Shown here piece after piece: positions 4,846 through 17,859 of a stretch of 40,713 nt of DNA. Source of the stretch: Acidobacteriota bacterium (GTDB lineage Bacteria; Acidobacteriota; UBA4820; DSQY01); assembly GCA_021833665.1 (NCBI GenBank), contig JAKBES010000006.1, positions 1 through 40,713 on the forward strand, written 5' to 3'. The position numbers and the translations under genes are program-made. How positions within the stretch are numbered: the stretch's first letter is position 1; each line of letters starts with the position of its first letter. The notes under the pieces were generated by a model, which was not told the origin of the DNA, made no database searches, and saw only the letters and a list, made by a program, of their open reading frames with translations.

Positions 4846-4930
4846 AGGCCAACTCCTCGAATGAACGCCGATTGTAGCAGGTCGGCCCACGAGGGGGAAG
4901 AGTGCGAGGCGGACAGGGGTGTTGGTTAAG

Positions 4931-5028
<98 letters not shown>

Positions 5029-9551: not shown

Positions 9552-10994
9552 CTACTTCGGCTTGACCGAGTATCCCGCGGGGTTGGGGAGGGCCGCCGCC
9601 TCGAGCCGGGTCGTGGCTCCAAGACCGAAGCGATCCCGGTTCTCTTCCAGATAGCGGACCACCTCGGGCGAGGCGGTCACGGTGGCCGGCCGGGACTGCT
9701 TCATCCCCGCGACGGTTTGGGCAATCTGCTGGGCAACCCGCCAAGCCGCGGGCACTCGTCCCCGGCCTTCGCAGCAGGGGCACACGCTCGTCATGACGCG
9801 TTCGAGGCTGCGGTGGCTGCGCTTTCGGGTCATCTCCACGAGGCCGAACTCGCTGATGGTGAGGATGCGGGACTTGGCCCGGTCCGTCTTGAGCGCCTCG
9901 TTGAGGTTGGCCACGAGGGCTTCGCGGTGGGCTTTCTTCGTCATGTCGATGAAATCGATGACGATGATGCCGCCCAGGCTTCGCAGGCGGATCTGCCTCA
10001 CGATCTCCGCCACCGCCTCCATGTTGATGGCGAAGGCGGTCTCTTCCAGGGATTTCTTGCCCATGTAGCGTCCCGAGTTCACGTCGATGGCCACGAGGGC
10101 CTCCGTGGACTGGAGGACGATGCATCCGCCCGAGGGAAGCCAGACCCTCGGCCGGAGGGCCTTGTCGATCTCCTGCTGGACCCGGTAATGGTCGAACAGG
10201 GGCACGGAAGCGTCGGCCCACCCCCGTATTCTGGACGGGCTGAGATCGAGGGTCTCCATCAGCTCCCGGCAACGCTGGGCTATCTCCTCGTCGTCCGTAA
10301 TGACCGTTCCCTCGCCCCGCAGCAAAATCTCTCTCACGGCGCGCCCCACCAAGTCCGCTTCCTGGTGCACCAGGGCGGGCGCTTCGCAGAGCTGGCTCTT
10401 GAGCCGGATGAGGGACCATAAATCGGCCAGCGCCTGCATCTCGCCGGCCAGTTCCTCCTCGGCCACCCCTTCGGCGGCCGTCCGAACGATGAATCCCCCC
10501 ACGGCCTCCCGCTTGAGGCGCCGCAAGATCTCCTTCAGTCGCCCCCGCTCCGTCCCGCCGATCTTCCGCGAGACGGCCAAGTGGTTCATGAAGGGCATGT
10601 AAATCAGGTAGTGGCCCGGGAGGGCGATCTCTGTGGAGAGCCTGGAGCCCTTGGCCCCCATGGGTTCCTTGATGATTTGTACGAGCAGGCGCTCGCCCTC
10701 GTGGAGGTTTTTCACGGTGGAGCTTTTTCGGTCGGCGAAGTCGCCTACCTCCTCGTCCATCAGCCCCGACGGGCCCATGTCCCCCTCGTAGAGGAAGCCG
10801 TCACGCTCCAGCCCCACGTCCACGAAGGCGCTCTCCATCCCTTGAAGGATGCGGTTCACCCGGCCTACGTAGAGGTTGCCCACGAGGCCTTCAAGGTGGG
10901 TCGGCTCGTGAAAATACTCCACAAGCCTGCCTTCCTCAATCACGGCGATCTGCACTTGCCACCGGTCCTTGGTGACCAGCAACTCCTGCTTCAT
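9552..10994 (-). CDS. rng: Ribonuclease G (RNase E/G family)
   Basis: The 480-residue length matches RNase G, without the long C-terminal scaffold of RNase E. It starts with the short N-terminal strand and an S1 domain (VGNLYVGRVNRILQGMESAF, about 38-125). The catalytic DNase I-like region has D304 in AIDVNSG and D347 in GGIIVIDFIDM, corresponding to the metal-binding aspartates of E. coli RNase E. The zinc-link is CPCC at 405-408. It matures 16S rRNA 5' ends and degrades mRNA in the cytoplasm. It lies 145 bp downstream of the radical SAM/DUF2344 gene on the same strand, an arrangement I recall from many genomes. Confidence 0.95.
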   Translation of the reverse strand: MKQELLVTKDRWQVQIAVIEEGRLVEYFHEPTHLEGLVGNLYVGRVNRILQGMESAFVDVGLERDGFLYEGDMGPSGLMDEEVGDFADRKSSTVKNLHEGERLLVQIIKEPMGAKGSRLSTEIALPGHYLIYMPFMNHLAVSRKIGGTERGRLKEILRRLKREAVGGFIVRTAAEGVAEEELAGEMQALADLWSLIRLKSQLCEAPALVHQEADLVGRAVREILLRGEGTVITDDEEIAQRCRELMETLDLSPSRIRGWADASVPLFDHYRVQQEIDKALRPRVWLPSGGCIVLQSTEALVAIDVNSGRYMGKKSLEETAFAINMEAVAEIVRQIRLRSLGGIIVIDFIDMTKKAHREALVANLNEALKTDRAKSRILTISEFGLVEMTRKRSHRSLERVMTSVCPCCEGRGRVPAAWRVAQQIAQTVAGMKQSRPATVTASPEVVRYLEENRDRFGLGATTRLEAAALPNPAGYSVKPK

Positions 10995-13682: not shown

Positions 13683-13705
13683 TTGGGAAGGGCGAAGGGC
13701 GAAGG
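13671..13705. repeat. Heptamer array GCGAAGG-type x5 (left arm)
   Basis: Five 7-bp units in register: GGGAATT, GCGAATT, GGGAAGG, GCGAAGG, GCGAAGG. It is purine-rich on the + strand and lies upstream of the radical SAM gene. It pairs in layout with the pyrimidine-rich array at 13861-13916 at the other end of the same intergenic gap. Confidence 0.7.
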
Positions 13706-13833
13706 AAGCCAAGTGCCCAAGAAGGGGGGCCGAAGTGTCACAAGACCGGCACGCAGGAGAGGCGATCGCAGGGTGCCTTTAGGGGTAGACGCGGCAACGC
13801 CCCAAGCGGACAGGGGCGCTGGCCTAAAGCAGG

Positions 13834-13852
13834 GAGAGGGCGGTGCCCTCTC
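13834..13852. other. Perfect stem-loop beside the RAYT-like gene
   Basis: GAGAGGGC and GCCCTCTC form an 8-bp stem with a 3-nt loop (GGT). Pyrimidine-rich sequence with T runs follows on the + strand, but no + strand gene precedes it; on the minus strand it lies about 50 bp after the RAYT-like stop with only a weak T run. It could be a terminator of that gene or a palindrome of the kind RAYT proteins bind. Confidence 0.5.
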
Positions 13853-13860
13853 TTTCCTTC

Positions 13861-13916
13861 CTTTTCATTTTTCACTATTTACTTTTCACTTTTCACTTTT
13901 CACTTTTCACCCTTTA
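13861..13916. repeat. Heptamer array CTTTTCA x5 plus variants (right arm)
   Basis: Eight units in strict 7-bp register: CTTTTCA, TTTTTCA, CTATTTA, four CTTTTCA, CCCTTTA. It overlaps the 3' end of the RAYT-like gene, encodes its last five or so residues and supplies the stop. The same unit occurs once at 501-507, and a shifted form (TCACTTT) in 5049-5091. Confidence 0.92.
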
Positions 13917-14763
13917 CACTTTCCTCCTGACGCCGCTCCGCCTTCCGTACGATGCGGCTAATCGTAGCGGGATGGAGCCCCAAGGCCCCTCCCAGCTCGG
14001 CGAGGGTGTAGCCAAACCGGAGGTAAGCCTCCGCGACACGGCGGTCCCGTTGGGCGTGGTCATCGGCGAGCGCGCGAGGCAGAAATCGCGAGAGAGGCGG
14101 CCGCCCCGGGGGGGCCTTGGAAGGGGGCCTCATGGCCGGCTGGCGGGGTTCCAACTGTGCGCCAAACGCCTCCGATCCCACAAAGTGCACCCGGACTACC
14201 GAGGGCAGTGCCTTCCCCGCCCCCGCCTTCACAAATTTCTCGTAGCGGTTCCTCGCCTTCTTGGGCCTCCCGCCGAACTGGGCCAGGAGCCAGGAGGGAT
14301 TGACCACGTGGGCCTGATCGTCGGCCCCTGCCGTGGCCCCGAAACTGCTCCAGCGCCACTTTCCCGCCTTCTTGACGTGCCCTGCGCGGACGGGTGCCAG
14401 GACGACCTCCCTGCACACGTCCACGAGGGGCGTCCCCTTTTCCACCGGCCAGGAGCCAAATCGTCCTTTGAATACTGGCCCTTTCCGGCCCCGCCGGCGG
14501 TTGTAACCCTGCGTAAACTCCCCGTTCAGGTCGCGCATGCCCCTGGACAGGTTGGCCTCGGGCGTCTCCACGACCAGGTCGTACCCCGCTTCCAAAACGC
14601 AGTAGGCGTGGCAGATCCACCTGTGGCGCGTCACCACGTGGCCCAGTATCTTCATGAAGCGGTCCCTGTCGGCCGCGTCGAGGGCACGGCCCGTCCCATC
14701 GATGCATCGGGTCTCAACCCAATAGACGGCCCCTGGCGATTCCAGTCTTGCGCGTCTTGCCAT
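13900..14763 (-). CDS. RAYT-family (REP-associated, Y1 transposase-like) protein lacking catalytic residues
   Basis: The 287-residue protein has the full RAYT/Y1 (IS200-like) scaffold: PGAVYWV at the N-terminus, TPEANLSRGMRDLNGEFTQ, YNRRRGRKGPVFKGRF, VVLAPVRAG and KWRWSSFGATAG. A C-terminal helix-turn-helix of DnaA/Trp-repressor type (about 240-275) follows. The catalytic positions are replaced. Where the family has NHxH (the HUH metal site) this protein has AGYD (G60, D62), and where the catalytic Tyr sits in a VEKDxYLL-like segment it has VEKGTPLV (P112). The usual HVTxRG is WVETRC. The frame is intact, so this looks domesticated rather than decaying. The ATG at 14763 has a G-rich site upstream. 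The C-terminus is encoded by a heptamer array. DNA binding without cleavage is the likely activity (inference). Confidence 0.85.
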   Translation of the reverse strand: MARRARLESPGAVYWVETRCIDGTGRALDAADRDRFMKILGHVVTRHRWICHAYCVLEAGYDLVVETPEANLSRGMRDLNGEFTQGYNRRRGRKGPVFKGRFGSWPVEKGTPLVDVCREVVLAPVRAGHVKKAGKWRWSSFGATAGADDQAHVVNPSWLLAQFGGRPKKARNRYEKFVKAGAGKALPSVVRVHFVGSEAFGAQLEPRQPAMRPPSKAPPGRPPLSRFLPRALADDHAQRDRRVAEAYLRFGYTLAELGGALGLHPATISRIVRKAERRQEESVKGEK

Positions 14764-14804
14764 GGCGCCCCCCGAGATGATGCCTGCAATGTACCGCAAA
14801 CCCA

Positions 14805-14829
14805 TTGACAGGAACAAGCACGTTGACAG
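14805..14829. promoter_or_regulatory. Direct repeat TTGACAG in the divergent promoter region
   Basis: TTGACAG occurs twice (14805-14811 and 14823-14829), 18 bp apart, on nearly the same helix face. The first could be a -35 for + strand transcription with a GAATAT -10-like hexamer 18 bp on; alternatively the pair is an operator, perhaps for the HTH of the RAYT-like protein encoded just to the left. Confidence 0.35.
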
Positions 14830-14940: not shown

Positions 14941-15621
14941 ATGGTTAGGATGGCCCCAAGACCGGCAGGGATCGGGTGGCGCCGCCTCCTCGTCCTGGCG
15001 GCTCTGCTGTGCCTGCCCATGTCTGCCCTTGCGTCCCGTGCCCGGGCTGTGTTGGACCTCGGTTCGGACGCCCCCGTCTTCCTGCCGGGGCAGGACCTCA
15101 CCCTCTCGTGGAACGCCCTGCCCGAAGGCACGGCGGAGTTCGAACTCCTCCTCGTCTGCGAATCGCCCGTGCCCATCAAACTCCGTCTGACCACGTGCCT
15201 GGACCCCCGGCTTCGGACGTACCGCTGGCGCGTCCCCAATCTGCCGTGTGACGTGGCGCGCCTCCGCATCCGCGCTGGGGTGGAGGGCGAGGAGCTGGCC
15301 TGGGCCTGGAGCGCTCCCTTCCGAATCGCTTGGGAAGCCCGGGCTCCCCTGCCGAGGGTCTCCCTCGAAGGAGGCGAACTGTGGCTGACCGAAGGCCGCG
15401 GCCAGAGTGATTTGGCTTCCATTGAAGGATCAGAATCCGCCGATCCGAGCGCGTTTCCTGGCCGGGGCGAGACCCTCGCCCCGGCTCCGCCATCTCAGGG
15501 CCTCGGGCTGCCGGCCGCTTCAGGGACAGACTTCGCGGAGGTTCGCCAAAGGGAGCCGTCCGCGCGGCCCCGCGCAGGGAGCGGTTCCGGCCGTCCCCTC
15601 ATCATTCCCCTCAGGATTTAA
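14941..15621 (+). CDS. Exported protein of unknown function
   Basis: A 226-residue product with a Sec signal: basic start (RPAGIGWRR), a hydrophobic core of about 12 residues (LLVLAALLCLP) and a cleavage site near ALAS. The next 110 residues look like a single beta-sandwich (FLPGQDLTLSWNALPEG, then TYRWRVPNLPCD), with Cys residues (around 73, 86 and 103) that could form disulfides. The remaining 90 residues are Pro/Ser/Gly/Ala-rich and probably disordered. I do not recognise the family. The Shine-Dalgarno site is weak; ATG codons at 14941 and 14950 are both possible. It precedes the TonB-dependent receptor by 117 bp on the same strand. Confidence 0.6.
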   Translation: MVRMAPRPAGIGWRRLLVLAALLCLPMSALASRARAVLDLGSDAPVFLPGQDLTLSWNALPEGTAEFELLLVCESPVPIKLRLTTCLDPRLRTYRWRVPNLPCDVARLRIRAGVEGEELAWAWSAPFRIAWEARAPLPRVSLEGGELWLTEGRGQSDLASIEGSESADPSAFPGRGETLAPAPPSQGLGLPAASGTDFAEVRQREPSARPRAGSGSGRPLIIPLRI

Positions 15622-15738: not shown

Positions 15739-17859
15739 GTGCATTTGAAATCATCCGTGCGTTTCCCGGTCATCGGCGGGGCGATCCTTGCGTCACTTTT
15801 CCTCCTGGGGCCGGTTCGGGCCTCTGGCCAAGAAGCGCCCCCCCAGGACAAAACCCAGCAAGGCTCCATGACACCTGCTGGCTACAGCGAGATCGTCGTC
15901 ACGGCGCCCCGCATGGGCGTTCCCTACAAAGAGGCGCCGGGGGCCACGTCGGTGGTGGGCGAGGACACCCTTGAGGCCATGCCCAAGGCCATCTCCCCGG
16001 GCGAAGCCCTCGCGCTCGTGCCGGGCGTGAAGGTGGATACTCAATATGACAGCGAGAAGTCTCACATCTCTATTCGCGGCCAGGGGATCCTTACGGAGAG
16101 GGGCATCCGGGGCATCCAGGTTCTGCTGGACGGCATCCCCCTCAACGACCCCAGCGGCTTCGCACCGGACCTGTACGACGTGGACTGGTCCACCGTCCAG
16201 CGCATCGAGGTGATCCGCGGCCCCTCGGGAGCTTTTTACGGCGGAGGCTCGTCCGCCGGCGTCATCAACATCATCACGAAGGACGGCCGCTCCGACCCGA
16301 ACGCCGCCGACGTCATGGCCGAGGGCGGGACCAACCGGTTCTGGAAGGCGCTGAGCGAGTTCGGCGGAGCCACCGCCTCCACGGACTACCGCGTCTCCGC
16401 ATCGCGCTCCATGGGCGACGGGAACCGCGATCACTCGGCCTTCTTCTCAACCAACCTCTACGGCAAGTTCAGGTTCGTCGTGACCCCCTCGTTCCAGCTC
16501 AGCGCCGTGATCATGGGAACGAGCTATTTCAACGAGAACCCCGAAGGGCTTAATGCCCAGCAGGTCCGCGAGAACCCGAACCAGGCCAACCCGGACTCGG
16601 CCCGCCAGAACGAGTTCGCCCAGACCCGCCGCTTCACCGCGGGCATCGTCGGCGCCGCCAAGGTCGCCTCCAACCAGGACCTGAATTTCACGGTCTACGG
16701 ACGCAACACCGACTTCGTGGAGTCCGTGCCCGCCACGGTCCAGCACCGGACGCTGAAAAACCCCGGCGCCATGGTCCAGTACACCTTCCACAGCGGCACC
16801 GGCCCCGTGAAGAACCACTTCAGCCTGGGCACCGACGCGTCGTGGCAGGACATCGACGAGTACCGCCGTCCCAATCTCGGCCACGCCGTCGAGGGGCCCA
16901 CCAAGGTTTCGGACGAGACCATCAGCCAGCACGGGTACGGCGTCTACGCCCTGGACCGCATCGAGTTCGGACCCCAGTGGGCGGCCACCTTGAACCTTCG
17001 CCACGACAGCATCCGCAACGAACTGAACGACCGCCTCAAGCTGGGCGGCGTGGATCTGAGCGGAGCCCGCGAGTTCAATAAGACCACGGGCCGCCTGGGC
17101 CTCACCTGGAACCCCCAACCCGACTTCGGCGTCTACGCCACGTGGGGACAGGGCTTCATGCCCCCGGCCACGGAGGAGATGCTGGCCAACCCCATCCACC
17201 AGGGAGGGTTCAACACCACTATCCAGCCCGCCACCTCCGTGGGCGAGGAGCTGGGCATCCGCGGAACCTTGATCGGCAAGGTCTCGTACGACGTGGCCGG
17301 ATTCTACCTCCACACCAACGACGACTTCGAACGGTATCGCGTGCCCAGCCGTCCTCTGGAGACCTTCTACGGCAATGCGGGAGATACGCGCCGGTACGGC
17401 CTGGAGACGGCCTTCGGCTGGTTCCCCGTGGAGAGCCTGGCGGTCCGCCTGGCCTACACCTACAACCACTTCACGTACACGCAGATCAGCAGCAAGGTCT
17501 TTCCCACGGCCGCGCCCGGAAACTGGCTGCCCAACAGCCCGGCCCATCAGGCATACCTGGACGTCCAGTACACTCCCGTGACCCACTGGATCCTGGGACT
17601 TTCGGGGGAGGCGCAGAGCCGCAACTACGTGGACCCCACCAACGTTCCCTACACGGGCGGGTATACCCTCGTCCACGCCCGGGTGGCCTACCAATGGCGG
17701 ACCGTCCACAGCCGCGGCGAGGTCATGCTCTCCCTGCGCAACGCCTTCGCCAAGAAATACATCGCCTTCACGGAGCCGGACCCGGACGGCAACTCCTACC
17801 AGCCCGGACCGGGCCGGGAAGTCTTCATGGGTGTTCACTTCTGGTTCGGGAAAAAGTAG
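15739..17859 (+). CDS. TonB-dependent outer-membrane receptor
   Basis: A 706-residue receptor for active uptake of a chelate or vitamin across the outer membrane, powered by TonB-ExbBD. It has a signal peptide (to about residue 30), a TonB box in SEIVVTAPR (about 50-58), and a plug domain with SIRGQGI, VLLDGIPLNDPSG, RIEVIRGPSGAFYGGGSSAGVI and NIITK. A 22-strand-type barrel follows, ending in VHFWFGKK. Substrate cannot be told; the plug resembles siderophore or cobalamin receptors in general. Start: GTG at 15739 or TTG at 15745; GGGAGGA at 15728-15734 fits the TTG spacing slightly better. An out-of-frame ATG-TGC-ATT-stop mini-ORF overlaps the start region. No Fur box or B12 riboswitch is evident in the 117-bp leader. 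A strong terminator follows. Confidence 0.93.
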   Translation: MHLKSSVRFPVIGGAILASLFLLGPVRASGQEAPPQDKTQQGSMTPAGYSEIVVTAPRMGVPYKEAPGATSVVGEDTLEAMPKAISPGEALALVPGVKVDTQYDSEKSHISIRGQGILTERGIRGIQVLLDGIPLNDPSGFAPDLYDVDWSTVQRIEVIRGPSGAFYGGGSSAGVINIITKDGRSDPNAADVMAEGGTNRFWKALSEFGGATASTDYRVSASRSMGDGNRDHSAFFSTNLYGKFRFVVTPSFQLSAVIMGTSYFNENPEGLNAQQVRENPNQANPDSARQNEFAQTRRFTAGIVGAAKVASNQDLNFTVYGRNTDFVESVPATVQHRTLKNPGAMVQYTFHSGTGPVKNHFSLGTDASWQDIDEYRRPNLGHAVEGPTKVSDETISQHGYGVYALDRIEFGPQWAATLNLRHDSIRNELNDRLKLGGVDLSGAREFNKTTGRLGLTWNPQPDFGVYATWGQGFMPPATEEMLANPIHQGGFNTTIQPATSVGEELGIRGTLIGKVSYDVAGFYLHTNDDFERYRVPSRPLETFYGNAGDTRRYGLETAFGWFPVESLAVRLAYTYNHFTYTQISSKVFPTAAPGNWLPNSPAHQAYLDVQYTPVTHWILGLSGEAQSRNYVDPTNVPYTGGYTLVHARVAYQWRTVHSRGEVMLSLRNAFAKKYIAFTEPDPDGNSYQPGPGREVFMGVHFWFGKK

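What the first reader, a model, noticed from the sequence alone, without database searches (positions are those of the whole stretch)
13900..14763. RAYT protein with every catalytic residue replaced but its fold intact
The scaffold is strongly conserved (TPEANLSRGM, YNRRRGR, APVRAG, RWSSFGATAG), yet the HUH histidines are G60 and D62 and the catalytic tyrosine position is P112, while the frame is full-length with a C-terminal HTH. Random decay would not spare the rest. This suggests selection for DNA binding without cleavage: a domesticated regulator or structural protein.
Basis: partly seen in the sequence, partly recalled or inferred. Interest (0 to 1): 0.72.

Follow-up and report, generated by a model that had tools for sequence, protein, structure and literature searches.

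The report
Catalytically dead, domesticated RAYT-family transposase relative
A gene descended from a small DNA-cutting transposase has lost its cutting residues and its mobile-element ends, yet natural selection has kept it at one chromosomal place in three related Acidobacteria, so it probably now serves the cell as a DNA-binding protein.

Summary
The 287-aa ORF at 13900-14763 (minus strand) is a diverged RAYT of the inverted-repeat-flanked type (TIRYT, TnpA_REP subclass 2.1) with a C-terminal HTH. HxH is G60/D62. The catalytic tyrosine position is E119, not P112, and the conserved Asn four residues later is A123. The decisive new facts are these. (1) Orthologues sit at the same site in all three held species of the genus: G002 (87% identical, G/D, Y to E) and G001 (61%, G/H, Y to A). 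(2) They are under purifying selection: dN/dS 0.26-0.28, and a codon model beats omega=1 by 85 log units. (3) Catalytically intact relatives with both flanks readable are almost all bounded by GGGGTCA[GC]RTCTT terminal inverted repeats (10 of 11); all three dead copies lack them. (4) Of 114 homologues from the phylum, 108 keep H, H, Y and N. The three dead orthologues lost them as one clade, and one distant protein (G229) lost a similar set independently. The fold is retained: the best Foldseek hit is E. coli RAYT 4ER8. So this is a domesticated, nuclease-dead, immobile TIRYT. DNA or hairpin binding without cleavage is likely but inferred; its target is unknown. New variant of a known kind.

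The parts
13900..14763 (-). Catalytically dead TIRYT/RAYT gene (287 aa, ATG at 14763, TGA at 13900)
   Evidence: ORF; homology; orthologues in G002 and G001
14344..14763 (-). HUH/Y1 domain, residues 1-140
   Evidence: Alignment A1; AlphaFold fold and Foldseek hit 4ER8; dN/dS 0.16-0.28
14578..14586 (-). Former HxH motif, now G60-Y61-D62
   Evidence: codons read
14407..14409 (-). Former catalytic tyrosine codon, now E119 (A in G001)
14395..14397 (-). Former conserved Asn at Tyr+4, now A123 in all three orthologues
13906..14058 (-). C-terminal helix-turn-helix, residues 236-286
   Evidence: family-level HTH described for TnpA_REP subclass 2.1 (PMC6006769)
11140..13632 (-). Conserved downstream neighbour: TIGR03960/TIGR03936 B12-binding radical SAM protein, followed by RNase E/G family gene 9552-10994
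   Evidence: syntenic in G002 and G001
14941..15621 (+). Conserved divergent upstream neighbour, 226 aa, no family
15739..17859 (+). Conserved upstream neighbour, TonB-dependent receptor (PqqU-like)

Best explanation
It is a TIR-associated tyrosine transposase (TIRYT, the HTH-bearing branch of RAYT/TnpA_REP) that became fixed beside the radical-SAM/RNase G genes before three species of an acidobacterial genus diverged. It then lost its metal-binding and nucleophilic residues and its terminal inverted repeats. Shown: homology, loss of the active site, loss of the mobile ends, vertical inheritance at one locus, purifying selection, retention of the fold (by prediction). Inferred: it is made, it cannot cleave DNA by the HUH-Tyr route, and it now works by binding nucleic acid without cutting. 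The HUH domain would hold a hairpin or single-stranded element and the HTH a duplex site, acting as a repressor or architectural protein. The most economical targets are the TIR repeats of its still-intact relatives in the same genomes; a newly acquired host site is the alternative.
For: Syntenic orthologues in all three held genomes of the genus, with the losses. dN/dS 0.26-0.28 against 0.17-0.21 for intact pairs, with dS up to 1.3 and no frameshift or stop; free omega (best grid value about 0.15) beats omega=1 by 85 log units. In neutral simulation no ORF survives at d>=0.6 and expected identity is 0.16-0.32, against 0.61 observed. TIRs on both sides of 10 of 11 intact copies with both flanks, absent from the three dead loci. 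Dead copies are monophyletic at 100/100 on a long stem. 54 of 93 columns conserved in intact copies are unchanged in all three, while the active-site set is lost. Fold kept: pLDDT 80.7, 4ER8 E=2.6e-5, TM 0.73 on the target. TIR repeats remain in the same genomes: 27 (G000), 11 (G001), 7 (G002), none in relatives without the transposase.
Against: Only three genomes, all fragmented draft assemblies (at least one a MAG), one 67% complete. No expression or binding data. The family's RGN signature (G20, N21) and H15 are also lost, so the original TIR specificity may be gone. The HTH evolves faster than the HUH domain in comparisons with G001 (dN/dS 0.48-0.55 against 0.16-0.22), so HTH targeting may have diverged between species.
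Confidence: 0.68

Rival explanations
1. It is a slowly decaying pseudogene of a transposase, caught before the frame broke.
For: Active-site residues are lost; the stem branch is long (1.05 changes per column), consistent with a relaxed phase; dN/dS is slightly above that of intact copies.
Against: dN/dS 0.26-0.28 between three species, dS up to 1.3, no stops or frameshifts, omega=1 rejected by 85 log units, neutral simulations lose every frame.
Confidence: 0.04
2. It is a dominant-negative or competitor: a dead subunit that pairs with, or competes for TIRs with, the intact transposases still present in the same genomes, keeping them in check.
For: Intact relatives (C251, C50 in G000; C221 in G002; C136 in G001) and TIR repeats coexist with it in all three species.
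Against: It shares only about 43% identity with them and has lost the RGN/H15 residues of the first strand; from memory, E. coli RAYT crystallised as a monomer, so subunit poisoning is less likely than site competition.
Confidence: 0.17
3. It is a different enzyme: the rebuilt pocket (for example D62/E119) supports a new chemistry.
For: D62 and E119 could bind metal and are identical in G000 and G002.
Against: G001 has H62 and A119, so no new acidic pair is conserved; the positions look free to vary.
Confidence: 0.05
4. The retained HUH domain now binds RNA or a hairpin in the neighbouring transcripts (radical SAM / RNase G cluster), acting as a local post-transcriptional or transcriptional regulator.
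For: Fixed position next to that gene set in three species; the HUH domain is the most constrained part over the longest distance.
Against: Position alone; the intergenic stretch, its hairpin and its heptamer array are not conserved in G001.
Confidence: 0.06

Closest known systems
TIRYT / TIRtron transposases (Di Nocera et al. 2013, PMC3733652), equated with TnpA_REP subclass 2.1 (Quentin et al. 2018, PMC6006769)
   Same: HUH-Y1 core, about 290 aa, C-terminal HTH of the HTH_23/HTH_28 type; close intact relatives in the same genomes carry GGGGWSAS-type TIRs; a known acidobacterial group.
   Different: Those proteins keep HUH and Tyr in all examples published there and are flanked by TIRs; this clade has lost the catalytic residues and the TIRs and is fixed at one locus.
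RAYT / TnpA_REP of E. coli (PDB 4ER8)
   Same: Best fold match; alignable through the HUH and Tyr motifs.
   Different: No HTH in E. coli RAYT (165 aa), which cleaves REP hairpins with an intact HxH and Tyr; here these are G/D and E, and no REP-like palindrome conserved between species was found at the locus.
TldR, the nuclease-dead TnpB-derived RNA-guided repressors (PMC13418256)
   Same: Concept: a transposon-derived nuclease that lost its catalytic residues and was kept as a binder or regulator.
   Different: TnpB/RuvC is an unrelated protein with an RNA guide; this one derives from the HUH transposase side. Analogy only.
Domesticated catalytically inactive eukaryotic transposases (e.g. ALP1/ALP2, FHY3/FAR1)
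   Same: Loss of catalysis with host-retained function.
   Different: DDE transposases of eukaryotes; no homology.

Membership tests
RAYT/TnpA_REP sensu lato (HUH-Y1 fold proteins) | Sequence homology over the Y1 core | tested here: met
   NCBIfam NF047646 E=3e-12 but below curated cutoff; 42-49% identity to intact members; Pfam Y1_Tnp not reached
RAYT/TnpA_REP sensu lato (HUH-Y1 fold proteins) | HUH fold | tested here: met
   AlphaFold pLDDT 80.7, Foldseek 4ER8 E=2.6e-5, TM 0.73 on target
RAYT/TnpA_REP sensu lato (HUH-Y1 fold proteins) | HxH metal-binding motif | tested here: not met
   G60/D62
RAYT/TnpA_REP sensu lato (HUH-Y1 fold proteins) | Catalytic tyrosine | tested here: not met
   E119 in the Tyr column, A in G001
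RAYT sensu stricto | Flanking REP palindromes repeated in the genome | tested here: not met
   No dispersed palindrome in the flanks; upstream flank unique, downstream hits are almost all the heptamer array
TIRYT (TnpA_REP subclass 2.1) | C-terminal HTH | tested here: met
TIRYT (TnpA_REP subclass 2.1) | Flanking terminal inverted repeats with GGGGWSAS | tested here: not met
   Present around intact relatives, absent at the three dead loci
TIRYT (TnpA_REP subclass 2.1) | Cleavage of its TIR or hairpin DNA | not testable with these tools
   Needs purified protein
Domesticated transposase | Vertical inheritance at a fixed locus under purifying selection without mobile ends | tested here: met
Domesticated transposase | Demonstrated host function | not testable with these tools
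   No expression or phenotype data

The most novel reading that the evidence does not exclude
A nuclease-dead HUH transposase has become a host DNA/hairpin-binding regulator, and this has happened more than once in Acidobacteriota: a distant protein in G229 lost H15, the RGN motif, the first His, H96, Tyr and the Asn independently while staying full length.
Probability: 0.4. Interest if true: 0.72.

Novelty: new variant of a known kind. Interest (0 to 1): 0.55.

Why it matters
What RAYT-type proteins do for their hosts is an open question, usually framed around their cutting activity. A clade that was kept by selection after losing both its active site and its mobile ends separates binding from cutting, and gives a clean system for asking what the binding alone is worth. 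It would be, as far as the open-access library searched here shows, the first described nuclease-dead counterpart on the TnpA (HUH) side of what TldR is on the TnpB side.

Tried and rejected
Pseudogene: rejected by selection tests. REP association: no dispersed palindrome in the flanks. The hairpin at 13834-13852 as a binding site: imperfect in G002, absent in G001. The heptamer array as a specific partner: it matches about 40 places in the genome. A conserved operator upstream of the gene or of the radical SAM gene: G001 is too diverged to align usefully. Degenerate TIR remnants at the dead loci: none clearly better than shuffled sequence (best P=0.07 in G001). Clean empty site: in G003-G006 the gene is absent beside the radical SAM gene, but the other neighbours are not there either, so insertion cannot be dated exactly. 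Antisense ORF 13843-14808: broken in G002, so not the selected frame. Defence-system library: no match. Papers on catalytically inactive RAYTs: none found; Bertels et al. 2017 on domesticated bacterial transposases is not held.

Full report
Observation. The frame at 13900-14763, minus strand, is 287 codons long with its natural start at 14763; a 40-codon in-frame upstream extension to 14883 exists but is not shared by the homologues. The protein matches the REP-associated tyrosine transposase model at E=3e-12, below that model's cutoff, and does not reach the Pfam Y1 transposase model at all, whereas two intact relatives tested match Pfam Y1 strongly. Automated annotation would therefore probably call it hypothetical.

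Active site. Alignment A1 of 21 homologues and residue read-out show N-H-Y-H replaced by A-G-Y-D, and R-Y-V-V-L-N-P by R-E-V-V-L-A-P. The tyrosine column is thus residue 119, not 112. A profile search aligns the E. coli RAYT structure 4ER8 in the same register. The Asn at Tyr+4 is also lost; by position it corresponds to the third metal ligand of IS608 TnpA (Gln at Tyr+4; my inference from family knowledge). Of 93 columns at least 90% conserved among intact members of the order, 54 are unchanged in all three dead copies and 18 are lost in all three, among them H15, G20, N21, N59, H60, H96, K103, Y119 and N123. The losses include every catalytic column but one and are not spread evenly.

Orthologues. 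The two other held species of the genus carry it: G002:C207 (87%) and G001:C123 (61%). G002 shows G/D and E; G001 shows G/H and A. In all three the gene lies between the TIGR03960 radical SAM gene and a 226-aa gene followed by a TonB receptor. Relatives in other genera lack it beside their radical SAM gene. The history reads as loss of the first His, Tyr and Asn before the genus diversified, and of the second His later in the G000/G002 line.

Selection. Nei-Gojobori dN/dS is 0.27 (G000-G002, dS 0.23), 0.26 and 0.28 (against G001, dS about 1.3). Intact pairs give 0.17-0.21; the neighbouring radical SAM gene gives 0.07-0.10. A codon model with free omega (best grid value about 0.15) exceeds omega=1 by 85 log units. 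Neutral simulation at d=0.6 or more leaves no frame open. Against G001 the HUH domain (0.16-0.22) is more constrained than the HTH (0.48-0.55), so the HUH fold itself seems to be in use.

Immobility. Di Nocera et al. (PMC3733652) described RAYT-like genes flanked by terminal inverted repeats with GGGGWSAS (TIRYTs), including an acidobacterial group, and Quentin et al. (PMC6006769) placed most of them in subclass 2.1 with a C-terminal HTH. I found that motif, extended to GGGGTCA[GC]RTCTT plus about 11 further conserved bases, on both sides of 10 of 11 intact copies with both flanks readable (L042 has an exact match on one side only) and at neither side of the three dead ones. The motif occurs 27 times in the window's genome and not once in the reversed control; the three genomes of the order in which no homologue passed the threshold have none. 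Published TIRYTs and RAYTs keep the HUH and Tyr residues in the members aligned by their authors (PMC3733652, PMC2817692).

Rarity. Among 114 distinct homologues of at least 170 aa from the phylum with all key columns, 108 have H, H, Y and N. The exceptions are the three dead orthologues, one with only Tyr changed (L028), one divergent protein (L180) and L146 in G229, which independently lost the first His, Tyr, Asn, H15, the RGN motif and H96, is full length, and has one GGGGTCAG upstream but no TIR pair. L146 has no close orthologue among 41 genomes around G229, so selection on it could not be tested.

Fold. The AlphaFold model (mean pLDDT 80.7, pTM 0.66) has the HUH-type strand and helix order and a C-terminal three-helix unit. 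The only PDB match below 0.001 is 4ER8 (E=2.6e-5), followed by ISDra2 and IS608 transposases.

Mechanism. Shown: dead active site, no mobile ends, fixed locus, selected frame, predicted fold kept. Inferred: nucleic-acid binding without cleavage as a repressor or architectural protein. TIR repeats of intact relatives in the same genomes are candidate targets, but loss of the RGN/H15 residues may mean a new target.

Verdict. New variant of a known kind; moderate to good interest; limited by three genomes and the lack of any binding or expression data.

Noticed in passing
L146/L218 (G229:C90:118731-119687, minus): An independent full-length RAYT-like protein that lost nearly the same residues (first His to R, Tyr to H, Asn to S, H15 to F, RGN lost, H96 to A); one GGGGTCAG upstream, no TIR pair.
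   Followed up: partly
G000 contigs C50, C64, C48, C251 and others (loci L073-L099): Two families of 24-nt terminal repeats (GGGGTCAGGTCTTTACTGTTAGTG and GGGGTCACATCTTGCA..TAGCA), 27 core copies, some solo or as short paired elements of about 250 bp (MITE-like).
   Followed up: partly
window 13861-13910: (CTTTTCA)7 array running into the 3' end of the dead gene; this heptamer matches about 40 places in the genome.
   Followed up: partly
window 4924-5028: (GTTGAGA)15 tandem array, 92-96% matches.
   Followed up: no
window 13692-13894 and G000:C66:6851-7060: About 200 bp of the intergenic stretch matches another contig at 69% identity: a possible dispersed element.
   Followed up: no
window 14941-15621, plus: 226-aa gene of no known family, conserved beside the dead transposase in all three species (48% identical in G001).
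   Followed up: no
L180 (G350:C120): Divergent full-length RAYT-like protein with Q-Y-Y in place of H-Y-H but Tyr kept.
   Followed up: no
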